Shown piece after piece: positions 44,218-50,627 of a stretch of 64,000 nucleotides of DNA. Each line of letters starts with the position of its first letter. Position 1 is the stretch's first letter. The translations under genes and the position numbers were made by a program. Source of the stretch: Lachnospiraceae bacterium AC2029 (GTDB taxonomy: Bacteria > Bacillota > Clostridia > Lachnospirales > Lachnospiraceae); assembly GCA_000703065.1 (NCBI GenBank), contig JNLK01000001.1:3432001-3496000 (forward strand), given 5' to 3'. The notes under the pieces were generated by a model. It saw only the letters and a list, made by a program, of their open reading frames with translations, was not told the DNA's origin and made no database searches.

Positions 44218-44649
44218 ATGGATTTAGACAACAATGCACATTCAGTATTTTTGCTTCACTATCATCTTGTTCTGGTTGTAAAGTATCGGAGAAGAGTTTT
44301 CAATAAATCAATATCAAACAGGGCGAAAGAGATATTTGAGTATATCGCTCCCCGATATAACATTTCCCTTGAGGAATGGAATCATGATGCCGATCATGTA
44401 CACATTCTCTTTAGGGCACATCCAAATACCGAGATCAGCAAATTCATAAACGCATATAAAAGTGCGAGCAGCAGGTTGTTGAAGAAGGAGTTTCCTGAAA
44501 TCAGGTCGAAATTATGGGAAGAGTATTTCTGGAGTCAGAGCTTCTGTCTGCTTACCACGGGCGGTGCACCGATCGAGGTGATCCGAAAGTATATTGAAAG
44601 TCAGGGGCAGAAGAAACGAAGCGGAGATACCGGTAAAGCGAAGAAATGA
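44218..44649 (+). CDS. tnpA: TnpA, Y1 HUH transposase
   Basis: A 143-aa single-strand transposase. The HUH motif is His60-Val-His62 (DADHVHILF), and the nucleophile Tyr125 lies in VIRKYIESQGQ. FLLHYHLVLVVKYRRRVF is the typical N terminus. It cuts and joins single-stranded DNA at the element's subterminal hairpins. The start has no perfect ribosome binding site (AGAGGTATAATATAT). tnpB follows 16 bp after its stop. Confidence 0.9.
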   Translation: MDLDNNAHSVFLLHYHLVLVVKYRRRVFNKSISNRAKEIFEYIAPRYNISLEEWNHDADHVHILFRAHPNTEISKFINAYKSASSRLLKKEFPEIRSKLWEEYFWSQSFCLLTTGGAPIEVIRKYIESQGQKKRSGDTGKAKK

Positions 44650-44665
44650 TACAGAAAGGTATTAT

Positions 44666-45784
44666 ATGGCTAACAAAGCGTTCAAATTTCGTCTCTATCC
44701 CAATCAGGAGCAGTCGGTTCTGCTATCGAAGACATTCGGATGCGTAAGATTTGTATATAATCGATGGCTGGATCGGAAGATCAAACAGTACGAGGAAGAC
44801 AAGACAACCGTTACATATACAATGTGCGCCGGGGAGATGGCAGAACTGAAGAACGAAGAAGGCTACACATTCTTGAAGGAGGTTGACAGCATAGCACTTC
44901 AGCAGGCGCTGAGGCATCTTGATACAGCCTTCCAAAACTTTTTTCACCTGCCGCAGACAGGATTTCCGAGATTCAAATCTAAAAAAAGCAATCGAAACAG
45001 TTATTCAACCGTATGCGTTAATGGGAATATAAACATTGCAGACGGTTTTTTAAAGTTGCCGAAGATCGGAAGGGTGAAAGTGAAAATGCACCGTGTCATT
45101 CCGGAGGGATACATACTGAAATCCGTGACGATCAGCAAAACACCCTGCGGAAAGTATTATGCCAGCATATTATATGCGTATGAACTGAATACTGTCGAAA
45201 AGAAAATGGATAGATATCTTGGGATGGATTATTCCATGCACGAATTATATATTGACAGTAATGGAAATGAACCGGAATATCCGGGATACTACAGACAGGC
45301 AGAGAAGAAGCTGAAAAGGGAGCAAAGGAAGCTTTCTCTGATGCAGAAAGGATCAAATAATCGGAATAAACAGCGGGTCAAAATTGCAAGACTCCATGAA
45401 AGAATCGCCAATCAGAGAAAAGACTTTCTTCACAAGCAGTCCAGACAGATAACCAATGGCTATGACTGCGTGTGCGTGGAAGATCTTGATATGAAGAAAA
45501 TGTCGCAGACAATGAAATTTGGTAAATCGGTTTCGGATAATGGATGGGGGATGTTTGTATCATTTTTGCAATATAAACTGGAGGAGCAGGGAAAAAAGCT
45601 CGTAAAGGTAGACAAGTATTATGCCAGCAGTCAGATCTGTTCGTGTTGCGGCTATGTAAATGAGGAAGTGAAAAACCTTTCAGTCAGACAGTGGATTTGT
45701 CCGGATTGTGGGGCTCATCATGACCGAGACATAAACGCGGCGATTAATATCAGAAATGAAGGCATGAGGATTGTTTCTGTATAA
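44666..45784 (+). CDS. tnpB: TnpB RNA-guided nuclease
   Basis: A protein of 372 aa. RuvC residues are present: Asp in YLGMDYSMHELYID, Glu in CVEDLDMKKM, Asp in HDRDINAAINIRNEG. The zinc ribbon has CSCCGYVN and CPDCGAHH. N-terminal KAFKFRLYPNQEQS. ATG 44666 is chosen (AGAAAGG upstream); the frame extends back into tnpA. TnpB cleaves the empty donor site using the omega RNA, aiding retention of the element. About 30-40 percent similar by eye to the tnpB at 10.2-13.0 kb. Confidence 0.9.
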   Translation: MANKAFKFRLYPNQEQSVLLSKTFGCVRFVYNRWLDRKIKQYEEDKTTVTYTMCAGEMAELKNEEGYTFLKEVDSIALQQALRHLDTAFQNFFHLPQTGFPRFKSKKSNRNSYSTVCVNGNINIADGFLKLPKIGRVKVKMHRVIPEGYILKSVTISKTPCGKYYASILYAYELNTVEKKMDRYLGMDYSMHELYIDSNGNEPEYPGYYRQAEKKLKREQRKLSLMQKGSNNRNKQRVKIARLHERIANQRKDFLHKQSRQITNGYDCVCVEDLDMKKMSQTMKFGKSVSDNGWGMFVSFLQYKLEEQGKKLVKVDKYYASSQICSCCGYVNEEVKNLSVRQWICPDCGAHHDRDINAAINIRNEGMRIVSV

Positions 45785-47193: not shown

Positions 47194-47685
47194 CTTTAAT
47201 TGAAAAATTTAACGCAACAAAAATCCCATTAAATAGAAAAATGCGTTGCAATAACTTTTGCAGAAAGGTGTATTTTAGAATACTCTTTCGTCGGAGTGGG
47301 AACGGAGTCACGGGTCTGTAGCGCCCTTGCGGGTCTGGGCAGCGCCCGGCTATTGCATCTACATTGTATTATGTGGATGTACTTGTGTTATTATTTCGTT
47401 TGATTACTATCTGCGGTTAGGAGTCAAATGAACAAATACAACAGAATAACATATAAAGAAAGATTGAGGATCGAAGCAGGTATCTATGCAGGTAAAAGCT
47501 TTGCTCAAATCGCTAAGGAGATTGGAAGAAGTACATCCAGTATTACAAGAGAAGTAAAGAATAATCGTATTAGGGTTAGATAATATGAAGTGACCTCACA
47601 TTTGCAGCAACGTGGATTTACCTGTATACTTTGATTGTCAAGATCATTGGTAACAGGGATTACCGCATACAAAAGGAGGTCACCT

Positions 47686-48849
47686 ATGAATAGAATACTC
47701 AAAATTGGAATGGATGTCCATAGTACAAATTTCACATTATGCGCAATGGAGCCTACTATCGGATCCGAAGACCGTATCTTTGGAGAGGTGCAGGTTGCAC
47801 CGGACTACAAAGAAGTCATCTATTTTATTGAAACTCTGAAACAGAAGCTTGGTCTTAATGATGATTATTCTATTGAATGCGGTTACGAGGCGGGTTGCCT
47901 CGGATATACTCTCTATCACCAGCTTACCAATGCCGGAATCAAGTGTGTTATTCTTGCACCGACAACTATGCTTACTCAACAGGGACAGCGCATCAAAACA
48001 GACAAACGTGATGCACGTTTAATCGCTCATTGTCTGTGTTATGGTGGATACCATCCGGTTTATATTCCTACCGGCGAAGATGATGCGGTAAAGGAATATC
48101 TCCGGATGAGAGATGACCATAAGCTTGCACTGAAAAAACTGAAACAACAAATCAACGCATTTGTACTTCGACACGGATACCAGTATACAGGAACCAAATG
48201 GACTATTAAGCATGTTGCCTGGCTGAGAAAGCTGGATCTTAATCCGATGTATAGGGAAACTCTCGATGAATACATGGCTTCATATGAGGAGCAGGAGGCA
48301 AAGATCGAGCGTTACGATAAAAGGATTGAAGAAATCTCTGCTGAGATGCGTTACAAGGAAAAAGCCGAAAAATTGGGATGCTTCCTTGGGATCCGGACAC
48401 ACACAGCATTATCTCTGATCGTTGAAACAGGTGATTTCAAGCGCTTTGCCAAAGGGAATATCTACGCGGCATTCCTGGGGCTTGCACCTGGTGAACATTC
48501 CAGTTCGTCAAATGTAAATCGACTTGGTATTTCCAAGGCAGGGAATGCACATCTCCGCTGCTTGTTAATTGAAGCAGCAAAGGGCATCTGCAAAGGCGCA
48601 ATCGGTCATAAGTCCAAAGCACTCCGTTCCAGGCAGAACGGACAGTCAGCTGAAGTTATTGCTTATGCCGACAAAGCGAATACCAGGCTTCGTAGCAAGT
48701 ATTATAAAATGATTCGCCATGGAAAAAAGAAAAATGTGGCAGTGGCTGCAGTTGCAAGGGAACTTGCATGTTTCATATGGGGCATGATGACCGGAAATAT
48801 CAACATAGCCTCTGGAGGTACATCAGCTCCGGCTGTCAGTCAAGGGTAA
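47686..48849 (+). CDS. IS110-family DEDD recombinase (IS1111 type)
   Basis: A protein of 387 aa. The N-terminal RuvC-like DEDD domain has Asp10 in KIGMDVHSTNF, Glu in YSIECGYEAG and Asp residues in IKTDKRDARLIA. The C-terminal Tnp domain has LGCFLGIRTHTALSLIVETG, FAAFLGLAPGEHSS-like residues (IYAAFLGLAPGEHSSS) and SNVNRLGISKAGNAHLRCLL, where a conserved Ser acts with the DEDD site. AAAGGAGGTCACCT precedes the ATG. These recombinases are directed by a bridge RNA, here probably encoded downstream. Confidence 0.9.
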   Translation: MNRILKIGMDVHSTNFTLCAMEPTIGSEDRIFGEVQVAPDYKEVIYFIETLKQKLGLNDDYSIECGYEAGCLGYTLYHQLTNAGIKCVILAPTTMLTQQGQRIKTDKRDARLIAHCLCYGGYHPVYIPTGEDDAVKEYLRMRDDHKLALKKLKQQINAFVLRHGYQYTGTKWTIKHVAWLRKLDLNPMYRETLDEYMASYEEQEAKIERYDKRIEEISAEMRYKEKAEKLGCFLGIRTHTALSLIVETGDFKRFAKGNIYAAFLGLAPGEHSSSSNVNRLGISKAGNAHLRCLLIEAAKGICKGAIGHKSKALRSRQNGQSAEVIAYADKANTRLRSKYYKMIRHGKKKNVAVAAVARELACFIWGMMTGNINIASGGTSAPAVSQG

Positions 48850-48963
48850 AATGCACCGCTTCGCGGCCCTTGACAGTCAACCGTCCCTGATGTAAATCAC
48901 AATCAAGCAGCAATCAGCAGTAAACTGCAGCTTGCTGCCTAAACAAAAAGTAACTGAATATCT

Positions 48964-49160
48964 GTCAGTATCTGTAAGAAGCTGTGATCACTGTAGGGTT
49001 TGAGTGATCTGCGACACCTCTATGTTGGCACTTCGGTGAACCACGCTTTTAGATCGCAGCGCTCTCGGCGAAACCATTAGCCTGTCGGTAGCCAATCCAC
49101 GAATAACAGAGTGGCCATATGCCGGGAACTGTTAAATCAGAGCTTCTTACAGGTGCTGAC
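48964..49160 (+). ncRNA. Candidate bridge RNA of the IS1111-type element
   Basis: Arms 48964-48988 and 49136-49160 pair over 25 nt with about three mismatches and enclose a further set of hairpins: GATCACT/AGTGATC (loop GTAGGGTTTG), CTGCGA/TCGCAG, and CCAC/GTGG (loop GAATAACAGA). TAGGGTT at 48994-49000 equals the left target flank 47571-47577. CACCTCT at 49015-49021 is the complement of the right flank AGAGGTG at 49238-49244. ATAACAGA at 49103-49110 occurs again at the right element boundary. These are the polarities expected of left and right target guides. Confidence 0.6.
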
Positions 49161-50612
49161 AGAAACAAACAAATGTGACCGTCAAGAAAAAGTTTCCGGA
49201 TGAGAAATTTACCCCTTGACAAAGGTCACTTCATAACAGAGGTGCGTACCTTTTACAAAAAGACTGCATCCTTGCAGCTCATTGCAGCGTAAAAGGAGTT
49301 TGTGGTGATGAGGAATGTGGAATACGCTGTCGTACATGTAGGGACTTTAATTGTACGGAGTACTGTAGCGAACACAAAACGCATACTTGCCCTAAAACAG
49401 AAAAGCCTCCGTTTGTATGCGATAATTGCAGCGAAAAGAAGAAAAAATCATGTCGTTACGACAAGTATTATTACTTCGCTGAAAAAGCTGATGCAAAAGC
49501 CAAGAAGCTCCGTTCTGAATCCAGAGAAGGACCGAGATTGAGTAAGTCAGAGCTTAAGGAATTGGATGAAATCCTATCCCCTCTGATCCGTCAGGGACAG
49601 CCTTTATCACATATCTGTAAAATACATGGTGATGAGATAAAGGTTTCTGAGAGGAGTATCTATAATTATATAGATTCTGGGGAACTGACAATCTGCAATC
49701 TGGATTTAAGGCGCAAGGTGAAATATAAACGGCGTCGAAAGAAACAGAGTGAGATTAAATGTAACAAGCAAAGCTATCGGCAGGGGAGAACGTATGATGA
49801 CTTCCAGAAGTATATGGAGGAGCATCCAGATACGCCGGTTGTTGAGATGGATACCGTAAAAGGAAAGCTTAAAAAAGAACAGGTTCTTCTGACGATCATG
49901 TTTAATAAAAACTCTGTTATGTTAATGATTTTATTGGAAGAAGAGACGATAGAGCAAGTACTTAAAGTGTTTGATGGACTGACTAAAAACTTGGGGATCC
50001 GAAGATTCAGAAAACTCTTCCCGGTGATTTTAACGGATAATGGAGGCTGTTTCAAAGATGCATTAGGAATGGAGTATACCAAGCGTGGATCTCCAAGAAC
50101 AAAAGTGTTTTATTGTGATCCACAAGCCTCCTGGCAGAAACCTCACATAGAGAAGAATCATGAGTTTATAAGGTATGTAATACCAAAAGGGAAAACTCTA
50201 AGCGTTTACACCCAAGAAGAAATGACGCTGACCGCAAATCATATCAACAGTACAGTGAGACCAGGGCTTGGTTATAAAAGTCCATATGATCTTGCCACAA
50301 TTGAAGAAATGAAAAAACTGTTGGAAGTGCTTAACATGTCACCAGTCCCCGCAGACGAGATATGTTTAAGTCCAAAACTTCTAGGTAATAAATAAGAATG
50401 AAAAGCAGATAGTTAATCATCCATAAATATCACCAGGTGGGTTGCATTAACTTTTGCAGAAGAAAATGCAAGTCGCAGTTTTGGCATGTAAACGATTAAG
50501 CGTTTTTCAACAGTTTTAAACGGATTATATCATAAAAAACACTCTGAAAATAGAAAAAACATGAATTTGAATTGAGATAATTTACAGATTTTGCAATGAG
50601 TTTTTCATTCAA

Positions 50613-50627
50613 GGAGTTACTTCCAAA
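50613..50627 (+). repeat. Target-site duplication (right copy) of IS30 element 2
   Basis: GGAGTTACTTCCAAA, identical to 47179-47193. Confidence 0.75.

What the first reader, a model, noticed from the sequence alone, without database searches (positions are those of the whole stretch)
48964..49160. Bridge RNA of an IS1111-type element with readable target guides
The 3' non-coding region folds into a 197-nt unit closed by a 25-nt stem. TAGGGTT in a hairpin loop is identical to the left target flank, and CACCTCT is the reverse complement of the right target flank. Those are the polarities described for left and right target guides of IS110-family bridge RNAs. The target, an IS30 transposase gene, is preserved on both sides, so guide and target can be compared directly.
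Basis: partly seen in the sequence, partly recalled or inferred. Interest (0 to 1): 0.8.

Follow-up and report, generated by a model that had tools for sequence, protein, structure and literature searches.

The report
RNA-guided insertion sequence, one guide misread
This is a jumping gene of gut bacteria that appears to carry a small RNA telling it where to insert; the RNA and one of its two guide segments were read correctly, the other guide is a different stretch, and among relatives one guide seems to change much faster than the rest of the RNA.

Summary
The finding is real and of a known kind. The element (47580-49239, 1660 bp, core AG) is an IS1111-like IS110-family insertion sequence with 13-bp subterminal inverted repeats and a structured RNA 3' of its transposase; 23 of 35 consensus pairs show compensatory changes in 42 aligned RNAs. 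The right guide CACCTCT is confirmed: RNA 49019-49013 complements the right flank (z 11.4, permutation maximum 4.3). The covarying left guide is CTTTT+AG at 49046-49052 (z 7.0). Right guide 5', left guide 3' is the order published for IS1111 seekRNAs, reversed from IS621. Donor guides follow the element ends (110 of 117). A relative in a 62-bp tandem repeat has intact empty sites beside it. Added here: the right guide turns over fast (51% different at 6-10% transposase-DNA divergence, RNA scaffold 2.5%, 12 pairs), and one genome has four close copies with three right guides. No expression or activity data.

The parts
47580..49239 (+). IS1111-like element, 1660 bp counted with the right-hand core copy
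   Evidence: Core AG at both junctions. Same junction structure at DNA level in relative L021. IS30 protein pieces lie consecutively on intact homologues L132 and L118.
47578..47579 (+). core dinucleotide AG, left junction
49238..49239 (+). core dinucleotide AG, right junction
47584..47596 (+). subterminal inverted repeat, left arm TATGAAGTGACCT
   Evidence: 13 of 13 complementary; in 60 elements with both ends the arm sequence varies but stays inverted, median 12 bp, range 3-16, the shortest (L007, L056, L173) likely from misplaced or cut ends
49223..49235 (+). subterminal inverted repeat, right arm AGGTCACTTCATA
47686..48849 (+). IS110-family DEDD transposase/recombinase, 387 aa
   Evidence: PF01548 and PF02371; NF033542 198 bits against cut-off 140
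48964..49160 (+). bridge RNA / seekRNA, predicted
   Evidence: fold z -4.24; 23 of 35 consensus pairs with compensatory change; covariance model R1 finds it in 32 of 397 family genomes, the own genome among them
48976..48987 (+). closing stem, conserved part, 5' arm (pairs with 49137-49148)
   Evidence: 11 of 11 pairs with changes on both sides
49137..49148 (+). closing stem, 3' arm
49003..49012 (+). stem at the base of the target-binding loop, 5' arm (pairs with 49056-49063)
   Evidence: 7 of 8 pairs with changes on both sides, 99.7% of cells paired
49056..49063 (+). stem at the base of the target-binding loop, 3' arm
49015..49021 (+). right target guide CACCTCT (5 guide nt 49015-49019 plus core complement CT)
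   Evidence: covariation scan z 11.4 at 49019 downward; validation on 66 further pairs
49046..49052 (+). left target guide CTTTT plus core AG
   Evidence: covariation scan z 7.0; validation on 31 further pairs
48994..49000 (+).
   Evidence: z -1.7 to 0.2 against the left flank at the five offsets tested; AAGG there in 35 of 48 RNAs
49074..49084 (+). right donor guide CCATTAGCCTG
   Evidence: ATTA/ATTG goes with left end ATAAT/ACAAT in 81 of 85
49103..49109 (+). left donor guide ATAACAG
   Evidence: equals the last 7 nt of the right end in 110 of 117 elements, four sequence variants
49216..49221 (+). TTGACA, -35-like; with GATAAT of the left end it would form a promoter only in the circle
   Evidence: spacer 17 in the window junction; TTGACA begins 22 nt (82) or 23 nt (24) before the core in 106 of 117 elements
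47194..50614 (+). IS30-family element interrupted by the IS1111-like element; second copy elsewhere in the genome
   Evidence: 99.8% identical over 3421 bp, each copy between its own 14-bp direct repeat (read by eye)

Best explanation
It is an IS1111-like, RNA-guided insertion sequence. The excised circle joins right end to left end and creates a TTGACA-17-GATAAT promoter, which drives the transposase and the downstream RNA (inferred). The RNA forms a target loop whose 5' side (49015-49021) pairs with the top strand right of the core and whose 3' side (49046-49052) pairs with the bottom strand left of the core, and a donor part whose 5' segment pairs with the left end and 3' segment with the right end. 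The transposase holds this RNA and exchanges strands at the shared AG, placing the element precisely with one AG at each junction. Supported here by sequence: ends, core, conserved fold, guide-target and guide-donor covariation, precise insertion in a relative. Inferred: transcription, RNA-protein binding, strand exchange.
For: A scan of RNA positions against 9 flank positions per side, both senses, finds only the right and left guide diagonals above the permutation maxima (35 right, 36 left flanks). Validation on pairs whose guide and flank were not in that set: right +1..+5 match .86 .85 .85 .77 .68 (permuted .28 .27 .32 .30 .27; n 66, 51 guides); left -1..-4 match .97 .87 .58 .48 (permuted .60 .38 .27 .32; n 31, 22 guides); overall means exceed the best of 2000 permutations. 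Nine groups of identical RNAs with 25 different flank strings, a few cut by contig ends, match at .88 .92 .96 .76 .60. Donor guides: 110 of 117 and 81 of 85. Structure: 96.3% of cells paired, slid controls 34-50%. RNA model hits in 72 of 79 loci searched, 41 of them used to build the model and 31 of 38 not. DNA-level empty sites beside L021.
Against: No expression or activity data. In the window element the left guide matches only TT plus core. 11 of 110 rows with a usable right flank match at 2 or fewer of the first 5 positions: five have weaker RNA scores (L075, L164, L166, L167, L168), L037 is an alignment shift of a near-perfect match, but L046, L040, L044, L080 and L182 have RNA scores above 100 bits and poor right matches. 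The transposase, 387 aa, is longer than the 330-350 aa published for IS1111 transposases, and the published SG pair reads SS.
Confidence: 0.94

Rival explanations
1. Bridge RNA: TAGGGTT (48994-49000) is the left target guide and the order is that of IS110/IS621.
For: TAGGGTT equals the 7 nt before the core in this element, a longer match than that of the covarying left guide here.
Against: No covariation at that position over 36 left flanks (z -1.7 to 0.2 at the five offsets tested); another segment has z 7.0. 35 of 48 RNAs have AAGG there with unrelated left flanks. It lies outside the guide loop of the covariation-supported fold.
Confidence: 0.03
2. The structure is only a DNA or mRNA feature (transposase-binding repeats or a terminator-like hairpin), and matches to flanks are chance or hitchhiking.
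For: Both strands fold well; no transcript evidence exists.
Against: Guide-flank covariation far above permutations in two sets, in the strand sense expected of each half-site, and donor guides that follow the element ends.
Confidence: 0.02
3. Guide-flank match arises after insertion: the element lands loosely and the guide then adapts to its flanks.
For: Right guides diverge much faster than the RNA scaffold. One Lactimicrobium copy (L080) matches its own right flank at 2 of 5 positions, while a sibling's guide would match at 3 of 5 (hand count).
Against: Identical RNAs with 25 different flank strings in nine groups match about as well as the whole set, so in those groups the guide came before the sites.
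Confidence: 0.08

Closest known systems
seekRNA of IS1111-family elements (ISEc11, ISPa11, ISKpn4, ISPst6; PMC11187229: abstract, sections 6, 9, 10, 13, 14 and passages read)
   Same: Non-coding region downstream of the transposase gene; subterminal inverted repeats; top-strand match 5' of bottom-strand match; natural re-direction by exchange of the target-matching bases.
   Different: Transposase 387 aa against 330-350; SG motif reads SS in the window and close kin; long RNA form there 145-170 nt. Re-direction there was shown for one pair with 72% identical transposases; here right guides can differ at 2-6% transposase-DNA divergence and within one genome.
Bridge RNA of IS621 and the IS110 group (PMC11208160: passages and section 12 read)
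   Same: Bispecific RNA with left/right target and left/right donor guides, 2-nt core inside the pairings, discontiguous right-donor pairing, circle-junction promoter.
   Different: There the RNA is in the left end and the left guide is 5' of the right guide; here it is in the right end and the order is reversed in the target loop and in the donor part.
IS110-family transposase of Butyrivibrio proteoclasticus B316 plasmid pCY186
   Same: 55.6% identical over 99% of the protein; best-ranked record of the plasmid collection.
   Different: Its RNA and target were not analysed here.

Membership tests
IS110 superfamily | DEDD RuvC-like domain plus Transposase_20 domain | tested here: met
   PF01548, PF02371, NF033542 above cut-off
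IS110 superfamily | guide RNA with target and donor guides that covary with sites and ends | tested here: met
IS1111 group | subterminal inverted repeats of 7-17 bp (range from PMC11208160) | tested here: met
   13 bp
IS1111 group | guide RNA in the right (3') end | tested here: met
   72 of 72 loci with a hit, the window's element among them
IS1111 group | top-strand match 5' of bottom-strand match in the RNA | tested here: met
   49015-49021 precedes 49046-49052; published rule in PMC11187229
IS1111 group | transposase of about 330-350 aa with GL-P----S(T)G motif | tested here: not met
   387 aa; motif GLAPGEHSSS. At the pair: SS in 32, SG in 25, other or not found in 15 of 72 loci scored, the window's two copies among them. 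The paper gives this as the usual range and consensus, with exceptions, so I speak of IS1111-like.
IS1111 group | transposase clusters with IS1111 transposases in a tree | not tested
   no named IS1111 reference sequence was used
IS110/IS1111 | RNA co-purifies with the transposase and is needed for movement | not testable with these tools
   needs a bench experiment

The most novel reading that the evidence does not exclude
The right target guide is a dedicated variable cassette: it is replaced far faster than point mutation of the element would give, perhaps by gene conversion between copies or by another process that acts on those 5-6 nucleotides, so that the element continually re-aims itself within a lineage and sibling copies in one genome can place each other in trans.
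Probability: 0.12. Interest if true: 0.85.

Novelty: new member of a known kind. Interest (0 to 1): 0.45.

Why it matters
It identifies, from sequence alone, which segments of an IS1111-type RNA are the guides, supports the published claim that guide order is reversed relative to IS621, and extends it to the donor part. The family offers many natural guide-target pairs, including close copies with different guides in one genome, so how such elements change target in nature becomes testable. It also corrects a reading that would have mutated the wrong seven bases.

Tried and rejected
Rfam: one match, below its gathering score. Empty IS30 site at DNA level: a 461-base right-flank query matched 6 of 299 family genomes, the own one included; the best other match (73% over 292 nt, L132) does not reach the junction, and in 61 genus genomes the best other IS30 protein is 51% identical. 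Replaced by protein pieces aligned apart: on L132 and L118 the two pieces are consecutive across the junction; on L116, L119, L121 and L124 the homologue is 4, 4, 2 and 1 residues longer there (positions reckoned by hand). General insertion upstream of genes: not supported overall; 24 of 101 right flanks have an ORF start 4-22 nt on, against 17.6% at control positions. Viral contigs: only 2 relatives. Plasmid records: the best is one Butyrivibrio plasmid at 55.6%, the rest listed are below 40% (98 other rows of 3187 records seen). Named families there were not placed in a tree; three small plasmid regions were fetched and not used. No paper of the held library holds IS110 with anti-Shine-Dalgarno or 'IS110 family' with Shine-Dalgarno and insertion site. 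Dropped rows: L002 (own second view) from the alignment; L038 and L071 from alignment A1 (42 of 44 distinct RNAs); L013, L014, L024 and L074 because their contigs end before or inside the RNA. My first validation count (71 right, 36 left) still held elements already seen under another locus number; one search removed them (66, 31).

Full report
The element. The window holds a 387-aa IS110-family transposase (47686-48849; PF01548 and PF02371; NF033542) between 13-bp subterminal inverted repeats. Both junctions carry AG...GGGTT-AG-ATAATATG... on the left (47578-47579) and ...CATAAC-AG-AGGTGCG... on the right (49238-49239). The own genome has a second, identical copy. The similarity runs past the element over the interrupted IS30 element: 3421 bp at 99.8%, each copy between its own 14-bp direct repeat (by eye). 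The simplest reading is one insertion into an IS30 element, which then moved with its passenger.

The RNA. The 197 nt fold better than 200 of 200 shuffles (z -4.24); the opposite strand does so too (z -3.05). From 80 loci fetched by protein and others from relatives' genomes, 48 RNAs were aligned; 42 of 44 distinct ones made alignment A1. Its consensus structure has 35 pairs, 23 with at least one change on both sides, 96.3% of cells paired; shuffles give 15.5 such pairs on average and 0 of 500 reach 23; slid structures pair 34-50% of cells. Model R1 hits 32 of 397 family genomes and 16 of 392 order genomes, the own genome among them both times and with genomes shared by the two sets. Among loci it gave 74 matches in 72 of 79 sources; 41 of these 72 helped to build the model, 31 did not. 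A second set gave 60 matches in 60 of 60, but those loci were fetched with the model or by the place of its hits. Of the seven sources without a hit, three contigs end soon after the gene (L058, L063, L076), three have a shortened gene match (L016, L068, L072); L139 was not looked into. Where found, the RNA lies 3' of the transposase on the same strand (72 of 72).

Target guides. I scanned the RNA positions 48947-49191 against 9 flank positions on each side in both senses, with flanks permuted among elements inside the AG-core and GG-core classes. For the right flank (35 pairs) the signals above the permutation maximum of 4.3 form one diagonal: RNA 49019 downward complements the right flank from +1 (z 11.4). 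For the left flank (36 pairs) one diagonal exceeds the maximum of 4.0: RNA 49046-49050 is identical to -5..-1 (z 7.0). With positions fixed, and after removing pairs already seen, 66 right pairs (51 guides) match at .86 .85 .85 .77 .68 .30 .11 for +1..+7 (permuted .28 .27 .32 .30 .27 .33 .14), and 31 left pairs (22 guides) at .97 .87 .58 .48 .29 for -1..-5 (permuted .60 .38 .27 .32 .26); here the permutation was free, not by core class. Over all 106 distinct right pairs, 71 match at the first four positions together. Effective specificity is thus about the core plus five bases right and two to four left. 11 of 110 rows match badly: five with weaker RNA scores, one alignment shift (L037), and five with RNA scores above 100 bits (L040, L044, L046, L080, L182). 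In the window element the right guide matches 5 of 5 plus core, the left guide only TT plus core.

Guide order. The right guide lies 5' of the left guide. PMC11187229 reports this order for IS1111 seekRNAs and the reverse for the IS110 type; PMC11208160 places the left guide on the 5' side in IS621. The donor part shows the same reversal: the last seven bases of the right end equal RNA 49103-49109 (aligned) in 110 of 117 elements across four variants (ATAACAG 74, ATATCAG 23, ATAACGG 11, ATAATAG 2), and left end ATAAT/ACAAT goes with RNA ATTA/ATTG in 81 of 85. Of the seven misses two show an implausible end (CCTTCAG), probably my end-finding. The right donor pairing would skip bases between core and ATTA, like the discontiguous pairing described for IS621 (passage of PMC11208160).

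Precise insertion. Relative L021 sits in a 62-bp tandem repeat. Three neighbouring places carry the uninterrupted sequence CAATT-AG-GTACAG, while the junctions read CAATTAG-ATAATATG and CATAAC-AGGTACAG: a 2-bp core, nothing lost. Its right guide region GCGCTGTACCT fits the target AGGTACAGCGG at 10 of 11 (hand count). For the window, the IS30 pieces, aligned apart, fall on consecutive residues of the intact homologues L132 and L118 when AG is counted once; four more distant homologues are 1-4 residues longer at that place.

Promoter. In the circle the right end's TTGACA and the left end's GATAAT lie 17 bp apart. TTGACA begins 22 nt before the core in 82 and 23 nt in 24 of 117 elements; 5 have no TTGA in the 27 nt scanned.

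Turnover of guides. Among 110 elements with distinct sequence, the six variable right-guide bases differ at 51% in pairs with 6-10% transposase-region divergence (12 pairs, scaffold 2.5%), at 69% with 3-6% (6 pairs from 7 elements, scaffold 2.7%), and at 72% in far pairs (30-50%). The closest pairs are few and mixed: below 1% three pairs differ at 0, 0 and 1 of 6; between 1 and 3% one pair at 6 and one at 0. So the guide is shared by near-identical copies and lost soon after. The pairs are not independent. In the Lactimicrobium massiliense genome the model finds five RNAs; the four close copies have three right guides, and L084 and L082 differ at 55 of 1649 columns overall but at 6 of 6 guide bases. 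PMC11187229 already describes natural re-direction for one pair with 72% identical transposases, so the phenomenon is known; the speed and the within-genome diversity are what I add. Copy L080 fits its own flank at 2 of 5 positions; this may mean guidance in trans by a sibling RNA, or a later guide change (single case).

Shine-Dalgarno-like targets. Several guides read like the ribosome's anti-Shine-Dalgarno (for instance CACCTCC; the comparison is from memory). A pattern for such guides fits 12 of 97 distinct guide strings; of 29 flanks that begin with such a sequence 14 have an ORF start close by, against 10 of 72 others. The guides are not phylogenetically independent, and no general preference for gene starts was seen (24 of 101 against 17.6% at control positions).

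Verdict. New member of a known kind: an IS1111-like, RNA-guided element, with one of the two guides in the finding corrected.

Noticed in passing
L075:3474-4193: Three bridge-RNA-like units in a row 3' of one transposase gene (model scores 27.5, 50.1 and 35.8 bits); the last lies next to the right end.
   Followed up: partly
window 47194-50614 and L203: Both copies of the IS30-family element are flanked by 14-bp direct repeats (GAGTTACTTCCAAA; GTGGTAGTGTTCCC), longer than the 2-3 bp I recall as usual for IS30.
   Followed up: partly
window 47596-47604 and 49170-49178: A second, inner inverted repeat pair TCACATTTG / CAAATGTGA; a second shared stretch of 7 or more bases occurs in 30 of 60 elements with both ends.
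   Followed up: partly
L009, L022, L028, L031, L032, L048, L070, L071, L144, L150, L160: Insertion directly at a Shine-Dalgarno-like sequence with an anti-Shine-Dalgarno-like right guide; in 9 of these 11 an ORF start follows.
   Followed up: partly
L080, L081, L082, L084: One genome with four close copies and three different right guides; L080 lies at a site that its own guide fits poorly.
   Followed up: partly
window 47686-48849: The published SG pair of the PF02371 region reads SS, SA or SD in 43 of 72 loci; the serine is kept in 68 of 72 (AA in L070, three not found by the pattern).
   Followed up: no
window 44594-45784; genome places: A 396-aa ORF that looks like TnpB of the IS605 family (from memory, not searched) lies 1.8 kb upstream; three more distant IS110-family genes occur elsewhere in the genome (34% identity over about 110 residues).
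   Followed up: no
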